Assembly: GCA_945890645.1 (NCBI GenBank)
Contig: CAMDCV010000021.1
Coordinates: 1-64,000 of the forward strand
Reading direction: 5' to 3'
Source of the DNA: Akkermansia muciniphila
Lineage (GTDB): Bacteria; Verrucomicrobiota; Verrucomicrobiia; Verrucomicrobiales; Akkermansiaceae
Length of the DNA: 64,000 nt
Position numbers and translations under genes: made by a program. The notes under the pieces are model-generated. The model searched no databases. It was not told where the DNA came from and saw only the letters and a list, made by a program, of their open reading frames with translations. Shown in pieces: positions 5,629-24,581 of the stretch; the first letter of the stretch is position 1; the number at the start of each line of letters is the position of its first letter.

Positions 5629-5823
5629 TAGGTCATATCCACCATTTTGCTAGCTCGGAAATAAAGGGTGCATAAAGAATTATGACGGAAATTACATGGT
5701 GAAATCAGAACCAGTTAGCGCGGAAGAAAAATTAACTCAGTCAAGTCAAGATGTGCGTTTATTCTAATATTACCTTAAAACGTGATGGCCCCTACGACCG
5801 TCTACTCCTGCTACACATTACCG

Positions 5824-7110
5824 ATGAAAACCATCCACTTCGTCCCGCCCATCATCGCGCTCGCGATCGTTGCGACATGGCTCACCTACCTTCGTAGCTC
5901 AGCCATTGCCTTGAGCGAAGACAACAACTTGCTCCGCGATACAATCACCAACTCCCGCGATGTTTCCTTTGCTCAAAAGGAACGCGTCAGCAGCAAGAAG
6001 CCCCAAAAACCAACTGAGACGGAGAGCAAGTCCGTAGCAGATTGGGTGGCGACCTCTCGCGATTGGAAAAAACTCGCACTCTTTGCCAAAGATGCCGCAA
6101 CACCAGAGGAACGTTCCGCGGCCCTGTCACGGCTGAAAAATCTCCTATCAGAAATGAGCGGAGAGGAACTTGCGACCGCTTATCCTGCGATCGCCACGTT
6201 AGGGCTTAAGACGTCGTATCGCGATGCTCTCGAAGACTTCATGCTGAAAGAGCTTGCCACGAAAAATCCCGAGTTTGCGTTTAGCCAATACATCTCAAAA
6301 TTCGAGCGCAATGGTGCTGTACCTAACACCCACGATTTCACACCATTTGAAGATTGGGTCACACGCGATCCCGCAGCCGCTACTGCATGGTATGAAAAAG
6401 AAATCGCCGCAGGCACCTTTGATAAGTCGCTCGACGGAAAATCGCCCTTTCGCGCCCCTTTCGAGGCAGCATTCATCAAAGCCTTGCTCATCTCTGACTC
6501 AGCCGCTGCGGAGAAGCGCTTGACGGAAACACCACTAGACCAACGAAAAGAGATCATTTCATCCATCATCAACGTGGCGGAAAAAGATCAAAAGGCTTTT
6601 GCTGACATGGTGCGCCGAACGCTTTCCCAGGAGGATGCGAGCAAAATGATCCTGAGGAAAACCATGGATCATGGCTACCTAGACGAACCGCAAAAAATCA
6701 AAGAAAACTTCGAGCGCATCGCGGCCACTCCGGAAGAACGCGCCACCTTTCTGGAGTTGCAAGCCGATGATATCATCGTGAATCTATTTGCCTTGAGAAG
6801 ACCGTCACTCGAAACACTCGACGAATTTCACACATGGGCGAAAGCCGTCGATCCTACTTCTGCTGACCGGGCCGCAGGAATCGGCATGGCCGAATACCTC
6901 GAAAGCATTACTGATCCGAAAGCCCCGGAGAGTATCGAAAAACTCGCCATCGATTTTCTCAGCTCAGGTGTCAGTGATGAATTCTTGATTCCGTTAATCG
7001 AGGGTAGCGGCAGAGGGCGAAACCCCCTATCGAAAGAAAAAGCGCGCGAGCTGGCAATGAGGATCACTGATGAAAACCGCCGTGAAGAACTGCTGCAAAA
7101 TCTGAATTAA
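5824..7110 (+). CDS. Anchored helical-repeat protein, copy 1 of a duplicated pair (first gene)
   Basis: About 428 aa. I chose ATG 5824 (MKTIHFVPP) over an upstream in-frame ATG at 5782 because its N-terminus aligns with the paralogue starting at 15428: both have a membrane helix followed by ATWLTYLR/AVWLTYLR and an acidic, Asn-rich stretch. The ectodomain is built of about 40-residue helical units containing a W-x-x-x-D-P-A-A-A-x-x-W pattern (WVTRDPAAATAWYEKEIA), reminiscent of TPR or Sel1 superhelices. It is 3 bp upstream of 7114, so translation is probably coupled. The same two-gene order recurs at 15428-17983. No enzymatic motif; probably a protein-binding scaffold. Confidence 0.7.
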   Translation: MKTIHFVPPIIALAIVATWLTYLRSSAIALSEDNNLLRDTITNSRDVSFAQKERVSSKKPQKPTETESKSVADWVATSRDWKKLALFAKDAATPEERSAALSRLKNLLSEMSGEELATAYPAIATLGLKTSYRDALEDFMLKELATKNPEFAFSQYISKFERNGAVPNTHDFTPFEDWVTRDPAAATAWYEKEIAAGTFDKSLDGKSPFRAPFEAAFIKALLISDSAAAEKRLTETPLDQRKEIISSIINVAEKDQKAFADMVRRTLSQEDASKMILRKTMDHGYLDEPQKIKENFERIAATPEERATFLELQADDIIVNLFALRRPSLETLDEFHTWAKAVDPTSADRAAGIGMAEYLESITDPKAPESIEKLAIDFLSSGVSDEFLIPLIEGSGRGRNPLSKEKARELAMRITDENRREELLQNLN

Positions 7111-7113
7111 CCC

Positions 7114-8292
7114 ATGAAACGTTCCCTCATCATCAGCGCCATCATCCTCGTCCTTGGCGCCATCATTGGTTGGCCGGAACTGCGTCGTCTTTCCCGCGAA
7201 CAAGACTCTCATGAAAAGCTGCGATCAGAAGCCGCAAAACCCGGTAACACAGACGCAGACGGCAATGCGAAAGAACAAATGAGCCGTTCTCGGCAACGCG
7301 AACGTTCTGAGATAGGAGAAGAAGGAAAAGCACTCGCTCAGGAATTGATTGCCTATTATCGCAACCCGAAAAGCTCCAACTCCAATTACCGAGAATTATA
7401 CACTCGCGTCCAAAAACTTAGCCTTTCCCAGTTCAAAGGTTTCGTCGCCGAATTCTGCGATATTGCCAACCGCGATGGAGCAGAACTAGAAAATCTCGAA
7501 GATATGATTGAGTCATATTCGGAAAAATACCCGATTGAGATGGCACAAATGCTCAGCAAATCGCCCGAAATCATGAATCACGACACGGCAGTCATTAGCA
7601 GCGCATTTTTTTCGCTGATCTACAACTGGGCAGTTGATAAGAATAATCCTGCTGCAGCATTTCAGTTTCTCGCAGCAGCTGAGCCGTCATTCCAATCGGA
7701 TTTCATCGATGTCATTGTGAGAGCCGCGCTAAGCTCTGAAAGACGAACCGAAACGCTCGCCGCCATGAGAGCCTTTGCCACGACCCAGGAGCAACGAGAA
7801 CTTGCGTATGGTCAGATGAACGTTCTCACCTTCGGCGAGGGCCACGTAAAACTCGGATACGATGAAGTCACCGCTTGGATCTCATCGGCGAATCTATCGA
7901 GTGAAGAACTTGCAGGTGCCACCAAGGGCATGCAAAAACAAGTGCGCGTCGGTGAAACGGCCCAATGGCTCGACTGGCTCGCAAAAAGTGAAGTTTTTGA
8001 CGAAATCGCAAAAGAACGCGCCTTCGAACTCGCCACCCAGTGGACAGAGAAAGACTACCAAGCCGTCGGCACCTGGCTCAACAGTGCCCCCGACAGTCCC
8101 GAAAAAGCGGCCGTCGCAGGAGCCTACGCCGCCAAAGCCTATCCCTACGATCCACAAAACGCCATGCAATGGATCCGAACCATCCCCCAAGGCCCTGACC
8201 GCACCAAAGCCCTGGAAACCATCTATCAAAGCATGCCGAAAGACAGCGATACCGCCAAAGCCTTCGCAAATGAAAATGGGCTTAATCGATGA
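7114..8292 (+). CDS. Anchored helical-repeat protein, copy 1 of a duplicated pair (second gene)
   Basis: 392 aa with an N-terminal membrane helix (about 4-20), a charged linker, and helical repeats of the W-x-x-x-D/N-P-x-A-A type. The last 130 residues are the best conserved part of the family: TAQWLDWLAKSEV, WTEKDYQAVGTWLNSAPDS, AYPYDPQNAMQWIRTIPQG and a final ALETIYQSMPKDS. The same C-terminus is present in 16772-17983 and, decayed, in 24330-24581. It starts 3 bp after the preceding stop. Function unknown; the adjacent downstream gene is an ECF sigma factor. Confidence 0.7.
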   Translation: MKRSLIISAIILVLGAIIGWPELRRLSREQDSHEKLRSEAAKPGNTDADGNAKEQMSRSRQRERSEIGEEGKALAQELIAYYRNPKSSNSNYRELYTRVQKLSLSQFKGFVAEFCDIANRDGAELENLEDMIESYSEKYPIEMAQMLSKSPEIMNHDTAVISSAFFSLIYNWAVDKNNPAAAFQFLAAAEPSFQSDFIDVIVRAALSSERRTETLAAMRAFATTQEQRELAYGQMNVLTFGEGHVKLGYDEVTAWISSANLSSEELAGATKGMQKQVRVGETAQWLDWLAKSEVFDEIAKERAFELATQWTEKDYQAVGTWLNSAPDSPEKAAVAGAYAAKAYPYDPQNAMQWIRTIPQGPDRTKALETIYQSMPKDSDTAKAFANENGLNR

Positions 8293-8445: not shown

Positions 8446-9183
8446 ATGTCGCTTGATTCGTCTAACAACACACGCTTCGCTAAGTTCCATAGCACCCGCT
8501 GGTCGGTGGTGGCGCGTGCGCAAAGCCCTACCTCAGGGGCAACGGAGGGATCGCTCGAATCGCTGTGCCAGCAGTATTGGACTCCGCTCTACGCCTACGT
8601 GCGCAGGTGCGGCCACTCGCGCCACGATGCACAGGATCTCACGCAGGAGTTTTTCGCGCGTTTGTTGGAAAAAAACTGGCTGGCCGCAGCGGATCGCTCT
8701 CAGGGAAAACTCCGCTCGTTTTTGCTCACAGCGATGAAACGTTTCCTCACCAATACATGGGATCGCTCGCAGGCGGCAAAGCGCGGCGGCCTGCACGTCA
8801 TCAGCAGCATGAATACGGAAGAAGGCGAGAAGCTCCTAGCCTCTGCCGCTTCGATGGGGGAAGAATCGGCGTTTGATCGTGGCTGGGCGCTCACCGTATT
8901 GAAATCGACGCTTCACCGCCTCCGTGCCGAATACGAGCCCGCCGGAAAGCTCCGCGAATACGAGCGCATCAAACCCGCCCTGACGTCTTTGCGCGGGGAG
9001 ATCGACTACGATGCGATAGCCACCGACTTGAAGGTCTTGCCCGCCTCGGCGCGCAGCATGGTGCACCGCCTGCGCAAGCGTTTCCGTGAGCTTTTCCGCG
9101 AGGAAGTCGCCGGCACCGTCGCTACAACGGATGAGATCGATGAAGAAATGCGGGCACTGATCGCGGCACTGGGTCATGTATGA
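8446..9183 (+). CDS. ECF sigma factor, kinase-linked type
   Basis: 245 aa RNA polymerase sigma factor of the ECF type usually found next to Ser/Thr kinases in Verrucomicrobia and Planctomycetes. It opens with F-H-S-T-R-W-S-V-V; region 2 contains YWTPLYAYVRRCGHSRHDAQ and the LTQEFFARLLEKNWL helix; region 4 covers about 165-215, with helix-turn-helix near YDAIATDLKVLPASARSM. No transmembrane segment. Its stop overlaps the kinase start (ATGA at 9180-9183), so the pair is translationally coupled. Presumably it directs transcription in response to a signal passed by the kinase. Confidence 0.9.
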   Translation: MSLDSSNNTRFAKFHSTRWSVVARAQSPTSGATEGSLESLCQQYWTPLYAYVRRCGHSRHDAQDLTQEFFARLLEKNWLAAADRSQGKLRSFLLTAMKRFLTNTWDRSQAAKRGGLHVISSMNTEEGEKLLASAASMGEESAFDRGWALTVLKSTLHRLRAEYEPAGKLREYERIKPALTSLRGEIDYDAIATDLKVLPASARSMVHRLRKRFRELFREEVAGTVATTDEIDEEMRALIAALGHV

Positions 9184-10556
9184 AGGAAAAACCCGCCAGC
9201 TCAGTTTGCCCGCGTTGCGAAATGCCGCTCGCGAGTGACGACGTCGATGGTTTGTGCGCCCGTTGTCTCGGCAGCCTCAACTTTGACGCCTTCACCACCG
9301 ACCACGGCACGGGAAATCACCCGGTTTCCCCGCCTTCTTCCGTGGAGGAACTCGCGCCATTTTTCCCCCAGTTCGAGATCCATTCCTGCCTCGGCCAGGG
9401 CGGCATGGGCGTGGTGTACAAAGCACGCCAGAAATCGCTCAATCGCTGGGTCGCTCTCAAGCTGCTTTCTCCCGAACGCGCCGCCGATCCCGCCTTCGCC
9501 CAGCGCTTTGCCAGCGAAGCCCGCACCCTCGCCGCACTCAGCCATCCGCACATCGTTGGCATCTACGATTTCGGCGAGGCGGGCGGGATGTTCTATCTGC
9601 TCATGGAATACGTGGAAGGCGAAAACCTGCGCCAAGTCCTCAAGTCGAAACGCCTCACACCGGCGGAGGCGCTCGCCATCGTCATCCCGGTGTGCGATGC
9701 GCTGCAATGCGCTCACGATCTCGGCATCGTCCACCGCGACATCAAGCCGGAAAACCTGCTGATTCATCGCTCCGGCACCGTCAAGATCGCCGACTTCGGC
9801 ATCGCCCGCATGATGGATCAGGAAAGCGCCGCCGGGGAAACATCGGGCACCCAACGATCCGGCTCGGCAGTATTCACCATGGCCACCGGCTCACCCGACT
9901 ACGCCGCACCGGAGCAACTCGCCATGGCTCTCATCGACCGCCGCGCCGACATCTACTCGCTCGGCGTCGTGCTCTACGAAATGCTCACGGGCGAGCGACC
10001 CGGCACCAACAGCGTGTCCGCGCCCTCCCGTCGGGCGAAAGTCGATCCCCATATCGATGAGATCGTACTGAAGGCACTCGCGAAAGAACCGGAACGGCGA
10101 TTCGACAGCGTCGTGGAATTTCGCAGCCGCATCCAACGTGCGCAGTCGGCTCTCGCATGCAAGCACCGCTGGCCGCGCCCCGCTTTGCTATGGACTTCCG
10201 CCACTTTGGTCATCGCCGCTCTTTTATTGATAGCATGGGCGGGCTGGGAAGGCCTATCGGGTAAGCACCAGAATATCTCTACGCCTGCCTCCGTTCCATT
10301 CACAGATCCGGACGTAGGAAAAAGCCTCGCTCAGAGATGGGAGGGAAATTTCAACGCTCTGATGGAAGCCCGCAAACAAGCTCTTATGCAAACACCCAAC
10401 GGCGGTTCAGTCCCCGAACACCTCGCCGCTGAAGTCGCCCGACTCGAAGCCCGCGATCAAATGCTGCGCGAACTCATTCTCAGCACCGATATACCGCCCA
10501 ATCAAATTTTTCCCGAAATGTTCGAATCTCCGCCACAAACTTCCGACGATCCTTAA
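9180..10556 (+). CDS. Membrane Ser/Thr protein kinase with N-terminal zinc ribbon
   Basis: 458 aa. The N-terminus has a four-Cys zinc-ribbon (CPRCEMPL then CARC). The Hanks-type kinase domain spans about 65-320: glycine loop GQGGMGVVYKAR (about 72-83), lysine in VALKLL (about 93), catalytic HRDIKPEN (about 184-191), DFGIA (about 203) and an A-P-E in the activation segment. A membrane helix follows at about 335-357, and a short outer domain of about 100 residues ends the protein. All catalytic residues are present, so activity is expected. It overlaps the sigma gene by 4 bp, and an exported protein gene follows 70 bp downstream. The likely role is phospho-signalling to or through that sigma factor. 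Confidence 0.92.
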   Translation: MKEKPASSVCPRCEMPLASDDVDGLCARCLGSLNFDAFTTDHGTGNHPVSPPSSVEELAPFFPQFEIHSCLGQGGMGVVYKARQKSLNRWVALKLLSPERAADPAFAQRFASEARTLAALSHPHIVGIYDFGEAGGMFYLLMEYVEGENLRQVLKSKRLTPAEALAIVIPVCDALQCAHDLGIVHRDIKPENLLIHRSGTVKIADFGIARMMDQESAAGETSGTQRSGSAVFTMATGSPDYAAPEQLAMALIDRRADIYSLGVVLYEMLTGERPGTNSVSAPSRRAKVDPHIDEIVLKALAKEPERRFDSVVEFRSRIQRAQSALACKHRWPRPALLWTSATLVIAALLLIAWAGWEGLSGKHQNISTPASVPFTDPDVGKSLAQRWEGNFNALMEARKQALMQTPNGGSVPEHLAAEVARLEARDQMLRELILSTDIPPNQIFPEMFESPPQTSDDP

Positions 10557-10626
10557 GTAATGCATGAGGACGAGGTCGCCGGATCACCCGCAGGCCACGA
10601 TCCGAATCAAATCATTCAGAAACATC

Positions 10627-12051
10627 ATGAAAACACATCAACGCATCACATTAGTCGCCTCCGTGCTTGCCACGGTCGCCATCCCATCCTCACTGCGTGC
10701 TCAGGCATCGGCAGCCGTAGCAAAAGACACACCAGCATCCGAGCGCCAACTCGAACTCAATAACGCAGAACGCCAAGCTTTACGGAAGGTTTACCAAACT
10801 GCCGTCGAGGAGATGCACAAGGTCAAGGATGAAATGAGAACCAACCCTGAAAAAAGAAACGATGTTGAAACATACATTCGCGCCATGCAGTGGGTTGTGC
10901 AAGTCGAGACCAAACTAAGAAAATTCCAGCCGAGTGACGCCACCAAAGTTGCCGCACTGACGAAACGACTCGATGAAATCATCTTGGATTATGCAAGCGT
11001 AGGAAATATTGTTTTTCAATGTGAGATGCTCGCTTCGCAGGGCAAGGGCATTCCTTTTGACAATGGCATCAACATCGTCCTGATGCACAAGGGAAAAACG
11101 AAAGAGACCTGGCGCAAATTGGATGGTGAGCTAATCCTGCATGACTACCTGAAAGCCTTGGCAAAAGAAGCGGGTCTGGTCGTCCACATCGGGGAAGATG
11201 TCGTCTCTCTTCGCCTCCCGGAAGACCTTGCGTTGGCAGAGGCGGCGACTGAAAAGCCGCAGGTAGATGAGCAAGACGCGGAATTGGCCTTCTATGAAAA
11301 GACCTATGGCAAGAAAATTTTCGGTGTGCGTCCATTGAGCCAGTATCCTCATAGCCGCGAATACTACGCGGCGATCTTGGAGCAATTGGGCCTTCGCGAT
11401 ATCATCTTCAAGGCCGCCGATGCAAAGTTCGGCACGGGAGATGAAAACGGCCCAGAAGCGAGGACGCTATCCCATGTCGGCCCCTCGCCAATAGCCCACA
11501 AGCCAGGTTGGTACATCATGATGATGTGCCGACCCGCCCAATCGGAGCAAGAGAAAGCGGCCTCGCAAAGGAGGCTATTCATCCGAAAGCTGCACCTCGA
11601 CTATGAGGGAAAGGTTGCGTTCTTGGAAGAAATAGCAGCATGGGAGCAGGCGCCTGCAAAACAGAAAGAAGAGAAGAAAAACGAGGAATTGGACTTCTAT
11701 GAAAAGACCTATGGCAAGAAAATCTCCCACTTGGTGAATCCGAAGAGCAAGTATGAAAATCCCGACGAATACTACGCGAATATCGCAGATCGATTGGGCC
11801 TTCGCGATATCATCTCCAAGGCCGCCGATGCGAAGTTCGGTTCGCCAGAGGTCAACGGCGTAGAACTTAGGACACTGGCTAGAGTCCGTCCCTCGGCAAA
11901 TGCCACCAAGCCAGGCTGGGACATCGAGATGACGTGCTACACCCCCAAGCCGAAGCACGAGAATGTGGACTCGGCAAAGAAGGTAATGGTCCAACTATTG
12001 CATCTCGACTATCAGGGAAACGTCACGTTTTTGGATAGAATGCCTAAGTGA
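10627..12051 (+). CDS. Exported protein with an internal tandem duplication
   Basis: About 474 aa from ATG 10627 (MKTHQRITLVASV), chosen over an in-frame ATG at 10564 because it starts directly at a typical signal peptide ending near LRAQA. The C-terminal 280 residues are two copies of one domain of about 135 aa: each begins FYEKTYGKKI, continues with REYYAAI or DEYYANI, LGLRDIIF/ISKAADAKFG, a K-P-G-W segment, and ends L-H-L-D-Y-x-G-x-V-x-F-L. The copies are joined by a lysine/glutamate-rich linker. The N-terminal region is helical. I recognise no family. It follows the sigma/kinase pair and ends at a strong hairpin, so it may be the operon's third member. Confidence 0.68.
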   Translation: MKTHQRITLVASVLATVAIPSSLRAQASAAVAKDTPASERQLELNNAERQALRKVYQTAVEEMHKVKDEMRTNPEKRNDVETYIRAMQWVVQVETKLRKFQPSDATKVAALTKRLDEIILDYASVGNIVFQCEMLASQGKGIPFDNGINIVLMHKGKTKETWRKLDGELILHDYLKALAKEAGLVVHIGEDVVSLRLPEDLALAEAATEKPQVDEQDAELAFYEKTYGKKIFGVRPLSQYPHSREYYAAILEQLGLRDIIFKAADAKFGTGDENGPEARTLSHVGPSPIAHKPGWYIMMMCRPAQSEQEKAASQRRLFIRKLHLDYEGKVAFLEEIAAWEQAPAKQKEEKKNEELDFYEKTYGKKISHLVNPKSKYENPDEYYANIADRLGLRDIISKAADAKFGSPEVNGVELRTLARVRPSANATKPGWDIEMTCYTPKPKHENVDSAKKVMVQLLHLDYQGNVTFLDRMPK

Positions 12052-15427: not shown

Positions 15428-16768
15428 ATGAAAAGAAAACACTACGTCCTGCCACTCGCGGCAATGATCATCGCTGCGGTATGGCTCACCTACCTGCGTG
15501 GCTCCAATAACGCTCTGGAACAGGACAATCTTTCTCTTGAGAAAAAGATCGAGAATTACCGCAATGCCACTGTTCTCCAGAATGAACGCGCCAGCACCGA
15601 GGCGATGCGCTCCGGTGCGATGCGCACGAAGATAAAGCGCGAAATGAGATCAGCGGAAACGGAAAACAAGCCCTCCGGCGATTGGGTGGGCACCTCCAAG
15701 GATTGGAACGCTATCGTTTTATTTAACAACAACGAGGGGGTGAGATTCAATCTCACACCGGCCTGCAGAAGGCTCGAAACGCTGGCTTCCGAAATGAGTG
15801 GTGACGAACTCGCACGAGCCTACACGCAAATGGCCTCACTCCCTGTTGATGCACCATTTCGCAATTACCTTGAATGGTTGATGCTGAAAGAACTCGAAAA
15901 GAAAAATCCCGAGTTTGCGTTTAGCCAACTCATTGCCAAATGCCAGAATGAAGATACGGGCCCGATCAAGATGGGCAATTTCGATAAATGGCTCGCGAGA
16001 GATCCCGCCGCCGCCACTACCTGGTATGAGAGCCAACTCGCCTCGAATGTATTCGATAAGACCCTTGACGGGAAAACTCCCAACATGGTGCCTTTTGAAG
16101 CTGCTTTTATGATGTCTTTGCTTGCATCCGATCCGGCTGCCGCTGAGCAACGCATGAACAATATTCCACCAGATCTGCGCGGCAGTTTGGTTGATTACGT
16201 GTGGAAAGTTCCCAAAGAAAATAGTAAGGCTTTCGTTGACCTGCTTCGCAAATCAATGCCGATGGAAGACTATATAGCCATACTGAAAAACAATAGTTTG
16301 ACTGAGAAAAATTTCAGCGGTGACAGCGATAACGATCCCAAAAATGCCCGGAAGAATCTCGATAATCTCGGTTTCACCCCTGAAGAGCGCGCCACTCTTT
16401 TGTCGCAGGACTTCACCGACTTTGCGCAGTATCGCGCCATGAGAGACAAATACGGCATGCCGTCTCGTGAAAAATTCGACGAACAACGCAAATGGATTCA
16501 AGCGGTCGACCCGAGCTCCGCGGATCGGGCGACGGGAGTGGCACTGCAACGTTACCTCAAAGAATCAAACACGACCAGCGCTCAGGCTTTTGTCGAGAAG
16601 GTCGCTTTGGATTACCATGGTTCTGGTGCAGGAGACGAGATATTGGTTCCCTTGATTGAGGGCAGTGCGAACGGGAGTATCCCTTTTCCCAAAGACAGAG
16701 CGCAAGTGCTGGCAACGAAGATCACGGATGAGAGGCTGCGTGAAGAAATGTTGCAAAAACTCAAGTGA
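15428..16768 (+). CDS. Anchored helical-repeat protein, copy 2 of the pair (first gene)
   Basis: 446 aa. The membrane helix is followed by AVWLTYLRGS, then a Gln/Asn-rich stretch and helical repeats, colinear with 5824-7110 (shared LMLKELEKKNPEFAFSQ and a D-P-A-A-A-T-x-W-Y motif). The last residues (REEMLQKLK) also match. It is 3 bp upstream of 16772, the same spacing as in copy 1. The sigma factor at 13606 has the same type of repeats outside the membrane, so this protein may contact it. Function unknown. Confidence 0.7.
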   Translation: MKRKHYVLPLAAMIIAAVWLTYLRGSNNALEQDNLSLEKKIENYRNATVLQNERASTEAMRSGAMRTKIKREMRSAETENKPSGDWVGTSKDWNAIVLFNNNEGVRFNLTPACRRLETLASEMSGDELARAYTQMASLPVDAPFRNYLEWLMLKELEKKNPEFAFSQLIAKCQNEDTGPIKMGNFDKWLARDPAAATTWYESQLASNVFDKTLDGKTPNMVPFEAAFMMSLLASDPAAAEQRMNNIPPDLRGSLVDYVWKVPKENSKAFVDLLRKSMPMEDYIAILKNNSLTEKNFSGDSDNDPKNARKNLDNLGFTPEERATLLSQDFTDFAQYRAMRDKYGMPSREKFDEQRKWIQAVDPSSADRATGVALQRYLKESNTTSAQAFVEKVALDYHGSGAGDEILVPLIEGSANGSIPFPKDRAQVLATKITDERLREEMLQKLK

Positions 16769-16771
16769 AGT

Positions 16772-17983
16772 ATGAAGCGATCCCTTATCATTTGTGCCGT
16801 GATCTGCATCGTCGTCGCTCTTCTGGGCTGGCGGGAAAGCAAGCAACTTTCCCGCAAAAAGGAGGCCAATGCCAAACTCGTGAGAGAAGCCGCGGCCATT
16901 CCCAACGATGATGCCTCCTTGTCAAGAGCCGCTTCCCTTCGCATAGCACAGAGCAAGGAAGGCCTCGCCATGAAGGAGAAAGTGAAAGCCCTCACAAGCG
17001 ATTATGTTGCTCTCTTGCGCAATGAGAACGGGGCATCTGCGGAAGAACTCGCCATACTGCGCGAGAACATCAAAAGTCGCTTGGAGGAACTCGACCCCTC
17101 AGCGATCAGAGAATTCATGGGCGAATTCAACAGCCTTCCCGACGTGAACTCAGGGATGAAGAGTGATGTGAACGAGTATGTCATGAATGTTTTTATCAAG
17201 AAATACCCGGTGGAGATGGCCGGAATGATGAGCAAGACTCCCGAGCTCTTTAGCATCAGCAATCAAACCATGCCCGAGAGAGTGATTTACGATCCGTTCA
17301 AGTTTCTCATGTACTATTGTTGCCAGCAAAAAGATCTCCCGCTTGCGTTCCAGTGCCTTTCGGAAGCATCGCCAGAATTTCAATCCAAATACATCGGTGA
17401 AACGTTACGATACTATGGAAATACCCCTCTAGGTCGAGCCGAGTTGTTCGAAGAGATGAGAGCCTTCGCCTCGACCCCGGAACAACTGGAGCTTGTGCAA
17501 GGTAAGATGAGCGATCTCCTCTTCGACCGTCCCGACGCAAAGGTTACGTTCATTGAAGTGTCCGATTTACTCCAATCCGCGAATTTATCCAGTGAGGAAA
17601 TTGTCGCTGCCACCAAGGACATGGAGAAGAAAGTGCGAGTCGGCGAAACCGGACAATGGCTCGACTGGCTAACGAAAAATGACATCCCCGATGAAGTCTC
17701 GAAAGAACGAGCTTTCGATCTCGCCACTCGGTGGACAGAGAAAGACTACCAAGCCGTTGGCCAATGGCTCATCAATTCCCCCAACAGTCCCGAGAAATCC
17801 GCGGTCGCAGGAGCCTACGCCGCCAAGGCCTATCCCTACGATCCAGAAGGCGCCATGAATTGGATTCAAACCATCCCGCAAGGCCCCGACCGCACCAAGG
17901 CTCTGGAAACGATTTATCAAAGCATGCCACAAGATAGCGGTGCCGCGAAAGCCTTCGCCAGCGAATATGGTCTGGGGAAGTGA
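16772..17983 (+). CDS. Anchored helical-repeat protein, copy 2 of the pair (second gene)
   Basis: 403 aa paralogue of 7114-8292. The first 16 residues are nearly the same (MKRSLIICAVICIVVALLGW against MKRSLIISAIILVLGAIIGW), and the last 130 are close to identical (TGQWLDWLTKND, WTEKDYQAVGQWLINSPNS, AYPYDPEGAMNWIQTIPQG). The middle is much more divergent, so either the C-terminal repeats are under stronger constraint or the copies have exchanged sequence. No catalytic motif. Confidence 0.7.
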   Translation: MKRSLIICAVICIVVALLGWRESKQLSRKKEANAKLVREAAAIPNDDASLSRAASLRIAQSKEGLAMKEKVKALTSDYVALLRNENGASAEELAILRENIKSRLEELDPSAIREFMGEFNSLPDVNSGMKSDVNEYVMNVFIKKYPVEMAGMMSKTPELFSISNQTMPERVIYDPFKFLMYYCCQQKDLPLAFQCLSEASPEFQSKYIGETLRYYGNTPLGRAELFEEMRAFASTPEQLELVQGKMSDLLFDRPDAKVTFIEVSDLLQSANLSSEEIVAATKDMEKKVRVGETGQWLDWLTKNDIPDEVSKERAFDLATRWTEKDYQAVGQWLINSPNSPEKSAVAGAYAAKAYPYDPEGAMNWIQTIPQGPDRTKALETIYQSMPQDSGAAKAFASEYGLGK

Positions 17984-18036: not shown

Positions 18037-18951
18037 TCATTTCGTTCGTGTGATCCTATTCCCTATGAAGCGGCCTAGAAATACTCCGGTTAACCCCAGT
18101 ATGGGAAAAAGATATAAGACGTAATGATTTCTCAACGTGATGTATAAGGCGATGCTTGCCATGACACCAACCAGAAATCCTACCACTATACCTATCATAG
18201 TGCCGAAGAATTGATGCGGTTTGTATGTATTCGCAAGGCGTATCGATGGCATTGGCGGTTCCGTCGCTCCTTGCGCGAGTGCATCAAGGAAATCGTTGGC
18301 AACTTCCATGAGGCGTTCGCGTTCGCTTCCTTCGAGAAGGATTTCTGCATAATCGGGGGTGATGATTCGTCCATCTGTGGCTCGTATGGCTATGAATCCG
18401 TCCTGCACTTCGATGAATCCGGTAGTGGCGGTGGCGAGGAAACGCAAGATGCTTGGTTTAAAAAATTTCGTCATTTCCGCTAGGCTGGGGACCAGATGCG
18501 GAGCGGATTTCATCGATGCCTGTATGGTTTCAAAGGCTCCTCCCGCAAAGAGCATGTAGTTTTTATTCAATGAATCAATCATCTGCCGTTCGTCCCATGC
18601 GGCTGTGGGAGCAAGCGTCAGATCAAGTCCCTTGACTCCGAGCGTTTCCATGGACTTTGTCTCGCGGCGTGGAAAGAGATCAAAGTTGGGAATGTCGAGT
18701 CCCGAACTGGGAATGATGATGACGGTACACCAGTACGTTTCATGCATGTATTTCCCGAATTGCTTCTCACAATCGAAAATCTCGAACGGCCTGTTTCGAT
18801 AAGTGCCGCAAACATGGTGGCGGAAACCAAGGGCACGCCTGAACATGTAAAGGTTTCCGGCTCCTTGAGAAAATGGACCCTCAGATTTCGCATGATAGGA
18901 ATACCCCTTCATGCGTGCCCAATGGAAATTCTTATTGTCGTGATCTTCCAT
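18037..18951 (-). CDS. Membrane protein with two C-terminal helices
   Basis: 304 aa with a soluble N-terminal domain of about 240 residues and two membrane helices near the C-terminus (about 245-268 and 274-295, the second ending in a basic R-I-T-R-T-K tail). The soluble part has several aromatic and Cys residues (HHVCGTYRNRPFEIFDCEK) and a strand-rich core (FIEVQDGFIAIRATDGRI). I do not recognise a family. It is the last gene of the minus-strand run that starts at 24201 and follows the kinase gene by 47 bp. Confidence 0.62.
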   Translation of the reverse strand: MEDHDNKNFHWARMKGYSYHAKSEGPFSQGAGNLYMFRRALGFRHHVCGTYRNRPFEIFDCEKQFGKYMHETYWCTVIIIPSSGLDIPNFDLFPRRETKSMETLGVKGLDLTLAPTAAWDERQMIDSLNKNYMLFAGGAFETIQASMKSAPHLVPSLAEMTKFFKPSILRFLATATTGFIEVQDGFIAIRATDGRIITPDYAEILLEGSERERLMEVANDFLDALAQGATEPPMPSIRLANTYKPHQFFGTMIGIVVGFLVGVMASIALYITLRNHYVLYLFPILGLTGVFLGRFIGNRITRTK

Positions 18952-18998
18952 GCCTTGGTTTCAGTTCTATGGTTTCTAGGTTTAGCGATGCGCAAATG

Positions 18999-21182
<2,184 letters not shown>

Positions 21183-21197
21183 TGGATCGATAAAATT

Positions 21198-21758
21198 TCA
21201 GGAGTTCTCATTGTTAGGATTCAGCTCGCGATAGAGCCAAAGTTTGGCGAGTTTCCAGTGGCGTTCCACCGTGCGCTCGCTGATTTCCAGTAGTGTGGCA
21301 ATTTCTTCATTTCCCAGGCCAGAGAAGAAGCGCAGCTTGACGATCTGGGCGTCCATCGGAAACTCGGCTTCGAGTCGATCGAGGGCTTCGTGCACCTTGA
21401 GCAAGTGGTCATCTTCCATCGGTACGGCGACGGGTAAATCATCGTCCAGAGTGACATTTTCTTCGCCTCCACCGCGCTTGGCTGCCAGCCTGCGCCGCGC
21501 GGCATCGACGAGAATGCGGCGCATCGTCTCGGCGGCAGCGGCGTAGAATTGCTTGCGATCGCGCCACTGCTCAGGTGCGGATTTTTCCAGCCTTAGCCAT
21601 GCCTCGTGGAGTAGACCGCAAGTATCCAGAGTGCCGCCTTTGCGTTCCATTGCCATCTTTGATTTCGCGATCCGGCGCAGTTCTGCATACAATTCGGCAA
21701 ACACCTGATTGTCGCGGGTTTGGTCGGCATTGTTCAGCCAGCGAGTGTATTCAGGCAT
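21198..21758 (-). CDS. ECF sigma factor of the TIGR02999 type
   Basis: 186 aa, the usual length for this small ECF class. Diagnostic segments are LYAELRRIAKSKM near the start, LLHEAWLRLEKS, the RRILVDAARRRLAAKRGG helix of region 2, and LRFFSGLGNEEIATLLEIS in the region-4 helix-turn-helix, followed by R-T-V-E-R-H-W. In this class the gene is commonly followed by a Hanks-type kinase, as here (15 bp gap). It starts 4 bp after the stop of the DUF3592 gene, so the operon continues from upstream. Confidence 0.92.
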   Translation of the reverse strand: MPEYTRWLNNADQTRDNQVFAELYAELRRIAKSKMAMERKGGTLDTCGLLHEAWLRLEKSAPEQWRDRKQFYAAAAETMRRILVDAARRRLAAKRGGGEENVTLDDDLPVAVPMEDDHLLKVHEALDRLEAEFPMDAQIVKLRFFSGLGNEEIATLLEISERTVERHWKLAKLWLYRELNPNNENS

Positions 21759-21762
21759 AATG

Positions 21763-22290
21763 TTATTTGATTTGTGCGGTCTTTGCTCTGACCATGTGAA
21801 ACATCACCACCAAGCCTATCACGAGTGCCATCAAGCCTAATGCCAGAGCCAACCAAGACAACCCAATTCCCTTGATCAATACGCTCTGATGAGGAGTCGT
21901 CGGATCATAATATACCTGCACTTCCTTTCCCGGAAGGAAGAGTAATTGCTCATCCTTGGCCGATGCCCAAGATCTATAGGACTTATTGCCATATCGCAGC
22001 CTGTCACCCTCAAACTTCTGACCATTCATTTCGTAGGAGTAGCGGACATTGATTGTGTATTTCCTGTCGAAACTATGAGTTCTACGACGCGCGGAAGAAC
22101 CAGAGACGTTCTCTTCGACGATTTTCGATTCGATGATTCTTCCCGCTGTTACTGGCCAGTCATTCGTTTTCAGTCCCTGCCGGAGTTGGAATGCCCCGAT
22201 GACCAAAAAAAGGAGACCAATCAAGGTGAAGCCGCCGCCAAAGATCCATCCGACTACTGACTGCTGTTTTTCTGCCATAGGTTGATTCAT
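21763..22290 (-). CDS. DUF3592 membrane protein
   Basis: 175 aa with two membrane helices (about 12-35 and 145-170) flanking an outer beta domain. The pattern W-P-V-x-x-G-x-I, a Tyr-rich strand (INVRYSYEMNGQKFEGDRL), then Y-D-P-x-x-P and a final helix identifies the DUF3592 family, whose function is unknown. The start could also be Met5. It sits between a secreted sensor-domain protein and the sigma/kinase pair. Confidence 0.82.
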   Translation of the reverse strand: MNQPMAEKQQSVVGWIFGGGFTLIGLLFLVIGAFQLRQGLKTNDWPVTAGRIIESKIVEENVSGSSARRRTHSFDRKYTINVRYSYEMNGQKFEGDRLRYGNKSYRSWASAKDEQLLFLPGKEVQVYYDPTTPHQSVLIKGIGLSWLALALGLMALVIGLVVMFHMVRAKTAQIK

Positions 22291-22310
22291 GTGGTTCTTG
22301 ATAGAATAGG

Positions 22311-23222
22311 TTATTTGATCTCCGCTTCAAAGGTGCCGATGACAAAACTTCTTTCCTCGTCTGGCAGGCGCAGGTGGATCTTGCCGGGGATTTTCCCATC
22401 CTTAGCGGTGCCGAATTCCAGTTTCATACTGTATCCATTGGAGTAAGTTGTAGGAACAGCAAAATCTTCGCCCTCTTTCCTGTAACGCAAGACAGCCGAT
22501 AGGCCAGTCACATCTTGACCTGGCTTCATCGAGAATGTTTTGCCATCTACCTTATCCTTGAATCCAAAGATCGAGAATTTCCGATCATCTTTGTTAGGCT
22601 CAGCACCACTCTGCCATAAAATCAATTCACCGTCACTGAAAGTGGCTTTCTCCACAATGAAATCTTCGCCATTGATTTTCCCCGCAGCAGGCTTGTCGGG
22701 AATAGCTTCCTTGGAGAGATCTTCGAGCTTGCCTGCAGCCGGAGCCTTTTCGCCGCCCTCTGGTTCGGGCGTTACTTTACCACTCGAAGCTTCCGCAGCT
22801 TTGGCAAATTTCGCAAAGTCCTCCTTGCTCATGGGATTGTAGACCATCCATCCGTCATCGGGGTCGTTGTGTGCCATCTTGCCCTTATCGAGCCTGATTT
22901 TCATCTCGATTTCACCGCCCAAATCCAGAGTGAGCGATTTCGTCTTTTCGTCCACGGCTTTGACGGTGTAGGGCATGGCGGGTACCTTATCTGGCGAGGC
23001 TACATGGATGATCATCTGGTCTTTCTGGAACTCATAGACCATTTTTTTCTCCATAAACATCAGCTTCAAGCCATCGATTTCGCGATTCGCCTTTTCAGCA
23101 ACTTTTTTGGTTTGGGCGGCATCAAGCGTCCAGTAGCCCTGCAATTGGGTTGCAAGATCGGTGGCTTGTGCGTGAATGACCGCTGCGGCGGCAACGACGA
23201 GTGTAATGATATATTTTTTCAT
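22311..23222 (-). CDS. Secreted protein homologous to the kinase sensor domain (A)
   Basis: 303 aa: a signal peptide (MKKYIITLVVAAAAVIHAQA) and one domain matching the outer part of the kinase at 18999-21182. Shared landmarks are LQGYWTLDA, YEFQKDQMIIH, IPDKPAAGKINGEDFIVEK, LILWQSG, and MKLEFGTAKDGKIPGKIHL with a final GTFEAEIK. A long acidic/Pro/Gly linker splits the domain into two halves. It lies directly upstream of the DUF3592 gene. It may compete with, or present a ligand to, the kinase (inference). Confidence 0.75.
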   Translation of the reverse strand: MKKYIITLVVAAAAVIHAQATDLATQLQGYWTLDAAQTKKVAEKANREIDGLKLMFMEKKMVYEFQKDQMIIHVASPDKVPAMPYTVKAVDEKTKSLTLDLGGEIEMKIRLDKGKMAHNDPDDGWMVYNPMSKEDFAKFAKAAEASSGKVTPEPEGGEKAPAAGKLEDLSKEAIPDKPAAGKINGEDFIVEKATFSDGELILWQSGAEPNKDDRKFSIFGFKDKVDGKTFSMKPGQDVTGLSAVLRYRKEGEDFAVPTTYSNGYSMKLEFGTAKDGKIPGKIHLRLPDEERSFVIGTFEAEIK

Positions 23223-23283
23223 GATGATTTGATAGATGTGTTAAATGATTGATAAAAACGAAACTGTATTGAAATTTGATGTA

Positions 23284-24201
23284 TTATTTGACTTCCGCTA
23301 CAAAGCTGCCGACGACGAAACTTTTTTTCGTATCTGGCACGCGAAGGTGAATTTTCCCTGGTATCTTTCCATCCTTTTGGGCGCCGAACTCGAGTCTCAT
23401 ACTGAAGCCGCGGAGGAATGTTCGAGTTTTGATGGTAAAATCTCCATGAACTTTATAGGCCAACGTGACGTCAATGTCTGTATCTTCGCTTGGCACCACC
23501 GTGAATGTTTTACCAGAAAAGTCTTCGACCGTAAATGGTTTCCCTACAAAGTCTTTGATTTTCTGACGGGGGAATTCAATTACAAATTCCTCTAAATTAG
23601 TCAAAAATCCATCGCCCTGACCGATTGTTAAAGAACCATCTTCTAAATCTAAGGTAGCTTCCTCGACTTTGAGTTTTCTGCCGTGAACCAATCCCGTTGC
23701 AGGCTGATCAGGGATCGGTTTCGTTGAAATCTCTTCGATTGGTTCAGCATTCACAGATTCCTCTTCCGTTTCCTCTTCATCCGCATAAAGACTCGAAAAT
23801 TCCTCCTTGGTGATAGGGTGATAGATCGTCCAGCCGTCCTCCGTGCCTTCCTTTAATTCTAAGTTGCCGTTGGTAAACTTGGCTTTGATTTCTTTTTCCT
23901 CCGACTTCAAGACAAGCGATTTCGCGTTTTCGTCCGTGGCTTTGATTGTATAGGAAACGTATTCATGGTTTGGCTTTTGAGATCCGTGGAATGTCATTTT
24001 GTCTTTTTGGAATTCAAAAACCAAGCTGTCTAATACAGTGACCTGTAACGCATCCAGTTCACGATTTTCCTTCTGGGCGGCAATGAGGGTATTTTCAGAA
24101 TCTGCCTTCCAGTAGCCTAGCAATTGGCTTGCGAGATCAGCAGCTCGTGTATGGATGATCGTCGTGGCGGCAACGACGAGTGTGATAAGATAAATTTTCA
24201 T
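23284..24201 (-). CDS. Secreted protein homologous to the kinase sensor domain (B)
   Basis: 305 aa from ATG 24201 (MKIYLITLVVAATTIIHTRA), which begins directly at a signal peptide like that of its neighbour; an in-frame ATG at 24255 would add 18 residues and is less likely. The mature part is colinear with protein A and with the kinase outer domain: LLGYWKADSENTL, FEFQKDKMTFHG, IPDQPATGLVHGRKLKVEE, DGFLTNLEEF, KDGKIPGKIHLRVPD. Several segments (YWKAD, DGFL, LEEF) are closer to the kinase than protein A is. First gene of the minus-strand operon. Confidence 0.75.
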   Translation of the reverse strand: MKIYLITLVVAATTIIHTRAADLASQLLGYWKADSENTLIAAQKENRELDALQVTVLDSLVFEFQKDKMTFHGSQKPNHEYVSYTIKATDENAKSLVLKSEEKEIKAKFTNGNLELKEGTEDGWTIYHPITKEEFSSLYADEEETEEESVNAEPIEEISTKPIPDQPATGLVHGRKLKVEEATLDLEDGSLTIGQGDGFLTNLEEFVIEFPRQKIKDFVGKPFTVEDFSGKTFTVVPSEDTDIDVTLAYKVHGDFTIKTRTFLRGFSMRLEFGAQKDGKIPGKIHLRVPDTKKSFVVGSFVAEVK

Positions 24202-24329
24202 GACAGCTATACACGCGCAAATTAGCCGAAAAAACCGACATATAAAAATCATCATTTTGTAACCTCTCTCTGAAATTAATGCTCTTACTGGTGTGAACGG
24301 CGAATTGGAATAGTGAAATCAGTTGCTAT

Positions 24330-24581
24330 GTCAGCTCGCCGCCCGTTTTACGGAGAGCGACTACCAAGCCGTCGGCCAATGGCTCAACAGTTCCCCCGAT
24401 AGTCCCGAGAAAGCGGCCGTCGCCAGCGCCTACGCCGACAAAACCTATCCCTACAATCCCGAAAACGCCATGAAATGGATCCAGACCCTGCCCCAAGGCC
24501 CTGGAAACGATTTATCAAGGCATGCCGAAAGACAGCGATGCCGCCAATGTCTTCGCCAGCGAATATGGTCTAACAAAGTAA
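24330..24581 (+). pseudogene. Decayed C-terminus of the helical-repeat family, with a frameshift
   Basis: The stretch reads LAARFTESDYQAVGQWLNSS then SPDSPEKAAV and AMKWIQTLPQGPG, matching the C-termini of 7114-8292 and 16772-17983. At about 24498-24503 the frame breaks: compared with the intact copies, 17 bases between two GCCCTG repeats are missing. The last part (ETIYQGMPKDS to FASEYGLTK) continues in another frame and ends in TAA at 24579-24581. The N-terminal two-thirds and any start are absent. Confidence 0.75.

What the first reader, a model, noticed from the sequence alone, without database searches (positions are those of the whole stretch)
18037..24201. Kinase sensor domain reused in two secreted proteins of the same operon
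The outer ~270 residues of the kinase and nearly all of the two secreted proteins share G-x-W, F-E-F-Q-x-x-K/Q-M, IP-x-KPAAG and KDGKIPGKIHLR in order. The operon is secreted B, secreted A, DUF3592, sigma, kinase, membrane protein. A kinase and free-standing copies of its own sensor made together suggests ligand buffering, hetero-oligomer sensing, or decoys.
Basis: partly seen in the sequence, partly recalled or inferred. Interest (0 to 1): 0.66.

Follow-up and report, generated by a model that had tools for sequence, protein, structure and literature searches.

The report
Kinase with free copies of its sensor
In a lake bacterium of the Akkermansia family, one gene cluster makes a membrane signalling kinase and also one to several secreted copies of that kinase's own outer sensor, and the copies swap parts like a recognition system, but what they bind is unknown.

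Summary
The outer ~270 residues of the kinase and nearly all of two secreted proteins are homologous (37-42% identity, E 6e-41 and 1e-58). The module is a lipocalin-like barrel (model) plus a beta domain. The operon pairs an ECF sigma factor with a Hanks-type kinase.

Both halves occur as secreted proteins elsewhere, and among 83 surveyed kinases only three orthologues carry the module, so the kinase most likely captured a secreted domain. In the ten-genome genus, all three kinase-bearing species have free copies; four others keep pieces of the operon, three of them with clear relics of kinase loss.

New findings:
(1) The secreted paralogues are mosaic: constant N-half (93-98%), replaced middle of the C-half (34-53%; synonymous sites near saturation), conserved last 40 residues.
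(2) The operon is 89-98% identical (secreted genes, sigma, kinase) between species whose other genes share about 45-75%, and is flanked by direct repeats, so it probably moves laterally.
(3) A second sigma-kinase module in the same genome also has a free secreted copy of its unrelated ectodomain. No other convincing case appeared among the 83 kinases.

Best mechanism (inferred): a self-regulated loop in which the kinase reads the ligand or assembly of the proteins it induces.

The parts
24213..24240 (-). promoter-like element TGTCGGTTTT-N11-TGCGCGT, ending 11 bases before the SecB start codon
   Evidence: exact core in 7 genus genomes and 2 mismatches at the same spacing in G050 of another family; only exact match in the window and in the genome
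23284..24201 (-). SecB: secreted protein (signal peptide + N barrel + C beta domain)
22311..23222 (-). SecA: secreted paralogue
   Evidence: structure model
22434..22700 (-). variable middle of the SecA C domain (residues ~175-263), replaced in paralogues
   Evidence: 34-53% protein identity between SecA paralogues against 93-98% in the N half; dS 0.5 to saturation against 0.13-0.54
22314..22433 (-). conserved last 40 residues of SecA (SMKLEFGTAKDGKIPGKIHLR...)
21763..22290 (-). DUF3592 membrane protein
   Evidence: PF12158 E 1.3e-14
21198..21758 (-). ECF sigma factor, TIGR02999; region 2.2 DAED replaced by DTCG
18999..21182 (-). transmembrane Ser/Thr kinase with the shared ectodomain
   Evidence: PF00069 residues 86-364, E 2.8e-43; HRDLKPSN, DFG and VALK present
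19449..19805 (-). kinase ectodomain, N half (residues ~460-578), lipocalin/FABP-like barrel in the model
19002..19403 (-). kinase ectodomain, C half (residues ~594-727), beta domain
18037..18951 (-). membrane protein downstream of the kinase, no Pfam family; same position in all seven genus genomes that hold it, about 47-54% identical
17729..17973 (+). flanking direct repeat, left copy (3' end of gene 16772-17983)
24335..24571 (+). flanking direct repeat, right copy (degenerate fragment, 78% identical, 17-base gap)
   Evidence: a similar fragment lies just upstream of the first secreted gene in G008, G004 and G002

Best explanation
A sigma-kinase signalling operon has captured the domain of its own secreted product as sensor. 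Shown: kinase and secreted proteins share one two-domain module; the operon is led by a conserved promoter-like element; the secreted genes vary in number (one to at least four) and exchange the middle of their C domain; the cluster looks laterally spread and is often deleted. Inferred: a ligand or partner met by the barrel and the C domain in the periplasm or at the surface changes the kinase, which activates the neighbouring sigma factor, which raises transcription of the operon. More free module copies are then made; they bind the same ligand or assemble with each other and with the kinase, and so set how much signal is left. The logic resembles BlaR1, whose sensor is a relative of a free enzyme class. 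Confidence is for the whole chain; the homology and capture part alone is about 0.85.
For: Module homology. The barrel half is predicted alike in SecA (VIA Z 7.0, 4qrl) and kinase (Z about 8, FABPs; HP1028 lipocalin 7.8). Kinase motifs intact; sigma is TIGR02999 and lacks DAED while another ECF in the window keeps it, as in kinase-regulated ECFs (PMC8103513, PMC8999054, PMC13147305). All three kinase-bearing genus members carry free copies. Juxtamembrane stretch shared with kinases that have other ectodomains, globular part shared only with two orthologues. Independent second case G000:C36. Promoter-like element in front of the first secreted gene in 7 genomes.
Against: No expression, binding or phosphorylation data. 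The promoter-like element is intact in G002, G006 and G003, which have lost this sigma gene, and is unique in the genome, so the sigma may not be what reads it. The sigma has Cys, not Thr, at the usual phosphorylation position (DTCG against QATA/QPTA). Secreted copies can persist without the kinase (G003, G004, G050). Free copies of kinase ectodomains are rare among the surveyed kinases, so there is no general rule behind the arrangement. Fold matches are middling.
Confidence: 0.38

Rival explanations
1. By-product of gene duplication: a tandem array of secreted genes next to a kinase gene gave an in-frame fusion; kinase and secreted proteins now do unrelated work and linkage is historical.
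For: Array number varies and genes recombine; the kinase is lost repeatedly while parts of the rest stay; ectodomain swapping is common in this kinase family (many architectures in PMC11032199).
Against: All three kinase-bearing species keep full or nearly full free copies; kinase N and C domains are conserved (91-97% protein identity, dN 0.01-0.04) across species; a second unrelated case in the same genome.
Confidence: 0.3
2. Free copies are decoys or ligand buffers that damp the kinase (negative feedback), with the variable C domain widening what they can bind.
For: Same module on both sides; free copies carry different C-domain middles while the kinase version is nearly constant in three species.
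Against: No ligand known; divergence of SecA and kinase (30-34% in both domains within the window's genome) may mean different binding.
Confidence: 0.15
3. Free copies and kinase ectodomain assemble into one oligomer or surface layer; the kinase is a gauge subunit that reports assembly.
For: The C-terminal beta strands are the most conserved part across kinase and secreted proteins, as expected of a shared contact or core.
Against: Conservation there is as well explained by fold constraint or gene conversion; no co-folding could be run.
Confidence: 0.12
4. The mosaic pattern is an artefact of metagenome assembly and binning; paralogues were stitched together.
For: All named genus genomes seen are MAGs and contigs break inside this family (G004 C27/C37, G005 C145/C25).
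Against: The same pattern appears between genomes from unrelated assemblies (window genome against the G008 pond MAG: N dS 0.16, middle 0.86), and the middles of G005 SecA2 and SecA3 match no other copy closely. The kinase/free-copy finding lies within one contig of the window.
Confidence: 0.05

Closest known systems
Kinase-regulated ECF sigma systems (ECF43-type: EcfP-PknT of Vibrio parahaemolyticus, EcfK-PknS of Xanthomonas citri)
   Same: ECF sigma gene next to a transmembrane Hanks-type kinase with a C-terminal ectodomain; sigma region 2.2 lacks DAED (PMC8103513, PMC8999054, PMC13147305)
   Different: PknS has periplasmic TPR repeats; no free copy of the ectodomain is mentioned in the passages read; the usual phospho-Thr position is Cys here
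BlaR1/MecR1 beta-lactam sensors
   Same: Outer sensor domain is a relative of a free protein class (class D beta-lactamases; PMC5957439), linked to control of a response gene (own knowledge)
   Different: Protease/repressor output, not kinase/sigma; single enzyme product; ligand known
SRK/SLG of the Brassica S locus
   Same: Receptor kinase and a second gene with the same S domain at one locus, with hypervariable regions in the S domains while the kinase domain varies least (PMC10316313); that SLG is secreted is own knowledge
   Different: Plant, other folds; there SRK's own ectodomain is hypervariable, here the kinase copy is nearly constant in three species and only the free copies vary; no ligand gene identified
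Verrucomicrobial/planctomycetal single-pass Ser/Thr kinases with swapped ectodomains
   Same: Kinase, TM, juxtamembrane stretch and variable C-terminal ectodomain (PMC11032199)
   Different: Free neighbouring copies of the ectodomain were found in only 4 convincing loci (2 kinds) of 83 kinases

Membership tests
Kinase-regulated ECF sigma factor (ECF43-like) | sigma gene next to a transmembrane Ser/Thr kinase gene | tested here: met
   15 bases apart, 21198-21758 and 18999-21182; adjacent also in G005 and G008
Kinase-regulated ECF sigma factor (ECF43-like) | negatively charged DAED of region 2.2 replaced by uncharged residues | tested here: inconclusive
   DTCG: three of four positions uncharged, first Asp kept; another ECF in the window keeps DAED
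Kinase-regulated ECF sigma factor (ECF43-like) | phosphorylatable Thr at the third position of the motif (88% of ECF43, PMC13147305) | tested here: not met
   Cys there, Thr at the second position; the paralogue at G000:C36 has it (QATA)
Kinase-regulated ECF sigma factor (ECF43-like) | phosphorylation of the sigma by the kinase activates it | not testable with these tools
   needs biochemistry
Hanks-type receptor kinase | catalytic motifs, one TM, C-terminal ectodomain | tested here: met
   PF00069 E 2.8e-43; VALK, HRDLKPSN, DFG; one hydrophobic stretch ~403-420
Lipocalin/calycin barrel (N half) | eight-stranded calycin barrel | tested here: inconclusive
   models pLDDT about 80; VIA Z 7.0 (SecA) and about 8 (kinase) to lipocalin-like and FABP chains, on the middling level for beta models
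TIGR03067 domain | score above the curated cut-off of 40.15 bits | tested here: not met
   14.6 bits, E 0.03, one member only
SRK/SLG-like receptor and free ectodomain pair | same-locus secreted copy of a kinase ectodomain | tested here: met
SRK/SLG-like receptor and free ectodomain pair | hypervariable segment in the kinase ectodomain as well as in the free copy | tested here: not met
   kinase C-domain middle is 91-96% identical in three species; only free copies vary
SRK/SLG-like receptor and free ectodomain pair | self/non-self ligand encoded at the locus | not tested
   no candidate ligand recognised; DUF3592 and the membrane protein are unassigned

The most novel reading that the evidence does not exclude
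A bacterial recognition locus: a receptor kinase with a fixed outer sensor plus a changeable set of secreted versions of that sensor, whose C-domain middles are swapped between copies and species by recombination and whose whole operon passes laterally, serving to tell strains, prey, phage or polymers apart.
Probability: 0.12. Interest if true: 0.8.

Novelty: new variant of a known kind. Interest (0 to 1): 0.56.

Why it matters
What ligands bacterial Ser/Thr kinase ectodomains sense is mostly unknown in the Planctomycetes-Verrucomicrobia group, which has many such kinases. A kinase whose outer domain exists as free, soluble, easily made relatives in the same operon gives a direct handle on the ligand. 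Two unrelated cases in one genome suggest that a free ectodomain copy can be a working part of sigma-kinase signalling. The mosaic secreted genes make recognition and diversification testable.

Tried and rejected
Pfam and NCBIfam for the shared region: nothing above cut-off; TIGR03067 at E 0.03 is not membership. Profile search of solved-structure sequences: no match. Foldseek on whole models: no usable whole-chain match; TbpB lobes appear for the C half at Z about 5, too weak to use. Viral contigs and plasmids: no relative. A regulon of the promoter-like element: 1 exact hit in the genome, 23 hits with up to 3 mismatches against 15 for the reversed control, so no regulon shown; a hit before a sigma-linked kinase in L129 has 2 mismatches and may be chance. 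Survey case L148: the free copy has no evident signal peptide and looks like the C-terminal half of a duplicated TPR-type kinase, so it is not counted. The idea that the arrangement is general in this kinase family is rejected for the loci sampled.

Full report
OBSERVATION. Residues 460-727 of the kinase (727 aa) match SecA at 37% (E 6e-41) and SecB at 42% (E 1e-58); SecA and SecB match each other at 41% from the signal peptide on. The shared region has no Pfam or NCBIfam family. SecA and SecB begin with ordinary-looking signal peptides; the kinase has one hydrophobic stretch near 403-420 and catalytic motifs VALK, HRDLKPSN and DFG. The homology is real.

WHAT THE MODULE IS. It has two halves. 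AlphaFold models of SecA (mean pLDDT 80.8, pTM 0.51) and of the kinase ectodomain (78.6, pTM 0.52) give an N-terminal barrel and a C-terminal beta domain joined by a floppy linker. The barrel aligns with lipocalin-like and fatty-acid-binding proteins in both models (SecA Z 7.0 to 4qrl; kinase Z about 8 to FABPs and 7.8 to the H. pylori lipocalin HP1028). This Z range is only middling, but two independent models agree and the order of elements fits. The C domain has no clear match. Linker and domain order are the same in kinase and free proteins.

DISTRIBUTION. In the window's genome the module occurs only in these three genes. Ten genomes of the genus were searched. Three have the kinase with the module (G000 = window, G005, G008) and each has at least one free copy: two in G000, at least four in G005 (two contigs), one in G008. 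Four more keep parts. G006 and G002 keep the first secreted gene as signal peptide plus the last 47 residues, then DUF3592 and the membrane protein, with about 75 bases of the sigma gene left behind DUF3592. G004 has the sigma gene fused in frame at codon 133 to the last 45 codons of the ectodomain; window bases 19138-21360 are missing at the join. G003 has one secreted gene directly before the membrane protein, with a Sec-type promoter and N half and a C half nearest the kinase (66-70% in the middle), as if DUF3592, sigma and kinase had been looped out between the homologous copies; that reading is an inference. So kinase loss is repeated and secondary in at least three of these four. G009 and another locus of G004 (contig C34) have C-half-only secreted proteins; G001 and G007 have none. 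Outside the genus the full module occurs once, alone, in G050 of another family. The C half occurs in 4 other genomes of a 337-genome phylum sample and in a Gemmataceae MAG, as a small secreted protein, behind a trypsin-like domain, or in a zinc-ribbon/TM protein. The N half occurs as a 145-aa secreted protein in G358.

ORIGIN. The kinase's juxtamembrane stretch resembles that of several kinases with other ectodomains, while its globular part is found only in the two orthologues among 83 membrane kinases of the genus and order. Capture of a secreted domain by a kinase is therefore likelier than release of a sensor. This is an inference from distribution.

SECOND CASE. At G000:C36 (locus L098) a paralogous sigma gene (42% identical), an SGNH-like hydrolase gene and a kinase (about 51% over the catalytic and TM part) are followed by a multi-TM gene and a 235-aa secreted protein that is 52% identical over 228 residues to that kinase's ectodomain (E 1e-72 against the fetched ORFs). 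This ectodomain is unrelated to the window's. Relatives of this second kinase in G003, G008 and G009 have no free copy nearby; in G005 the contig ends. A small tree places the free copy among the kinase ectodomains without firm support, so here the free copy may have come from the kinase, the reverse direction. Of 83 surveyed kinases, five loci had a neighbouring free relative: three window-type orthologues, C36, and one TPR-type fragment without evident signal peptide that is not counted.

MOSAIC SECRETED GENES. Among SecA-type genes of G000, G005, G008 and G004 the N half is 93-98% identical in protein and 90-96% in DNA, the middle of the C domain only 34-53% between SecA, SecA2, SecA3 and the G008 copy (46-71% in DNA), and the last 40 residues 80-100%. 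Identity drops sharply near residue 145-185 and recovers near 265. Synonymous divergence follows the same steps (G005 SecA against SecA3: N 0.13, middle 1.82, tail 0.12; SecA against SecA2: 0.30, saturated, 0.75), so selection on protein alone cannot explain it; segments were replaced by recombination. Orthologous pairs do not show the step (SecB of G000 and G005: 0.03, 0.06, 0.17), and the kinase middle is 91-96% identical in three species. Trees of the parts disagree. Assembly artefacts are a caution because contigs break inside the family, but unrelated assemblies show the same pattern.

MOVEMENT. SecB, SecA, sigma and kinase are 89-98% identical between G000 and G005 (DUF3592 78%), while the adjoining membrane protein, the next two genes and most other compared orthologues are 45-75%; a second block at 8.4-12 kb is also 90-94%. 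High DNA identity to G005 and G008 stops at the kinase's end (window 19000). The operon lies between same-direction copies of the 3' end of gene 16772-17983: 17729-17973 and a degenerate copy at 24335-24571, 78% identical. A similar fragment lies before the first secreted gene in G008, G004 and G002. Lateral spread within the genus is the simplest reading; core-gene divergence was not measured.

CONTROL. The sigma factor belongs to TIGR02999. In region 2.2 it has DTCG where canonical factors, including another ECF in this window, have DAED; the C36 sigma has QATA. Loss of DAED marks kinase-activated ECFs, where a phosphorylated Thr restores the charge (PMC8103513, PMC8999054, PMC13147305). The usual Thr position is Cys here, so the phosphosite would have to be another residue. 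In front of the first secreted gene a two-part element, TGTCGGTTTT-N11-TGCGCGT, is exact in seven genus genomes and has two mismatches in G050, always at nearly the same distance from the start codon. It is the only exact copy in the genome. Because it also persists in genomes that lost this sigma gene, self-regulation is plausible but not shown.

MECHANISM. The best reading is a loop in which the kinase samples the same ligand or partner as the secreted proteins that the operon makes. Shown steps: homology, linkage, intact kinase motifs, sigma pairing, conserved upstream element. Inferred steps: ligand binding by the barrel, phosphorylation of the sigma, self-activation, effect of free copies on kinase output. 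Rival readings are given with refuting results.

VERDICT. The arrangement is a new variant of ECF-kinase signalling. It resembles BlaR1 (sensor related to a free protein class, PMC5957439) and the SRK/SLG locus of Brassica (PMC10316313), but differs in output and in which copy varies.

Noticed in passing
window 8446-10556: A second sigma-like plus kinase gene pair (245 and 458 aa, overlapping by 4 bases) that, with gene 10564-12051, is 90-94% identical to G005, where it lies directly beside SecB; in the window it is about 11 kb away.
   Followed up: partly
window 10564-12051: Secreted protein with an internal repeat (FYEKTYGKKI); G005 carries two tandem relatives (67% and 90%).
   Followed up: no
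window 5782-8292 and 15428-17983: A duplicated pair of genes for a two-protein family (same-order neighbours; 42% and 48% identical between copies) on both sides of the region; the 3' end of the second gene recurs as a fragment at 24335-24571.
   Followed up: partly
L033 6404-6940 (G004:C27): In-frame fusion of a truncated sigma factor (133 residues) with the last 45 residues of the kinase ectodomain, probably a deletion relic.
   Followed up: yes
L037 3340-3555 and L038 3932-4147: 71-aa remnants of the secreted gene keep signal peptide and last 47 residues in frame in two genomes, perhaps to keep translation of the next gene going.
   Followed up: partly
window 18037-18951: Membrane protein kept in the same position in seven genus genomes, also where sigma and kinase are lost, but only about 47-54% identical and without a Pfam family.
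   Followed up: partly
L024, L026, L027 (records titled Akkermansia muciniphila ME-21oct19): These records sit in the window's genus with lake MAGs; the species name in the record title looks wrong.
   Followed up: no
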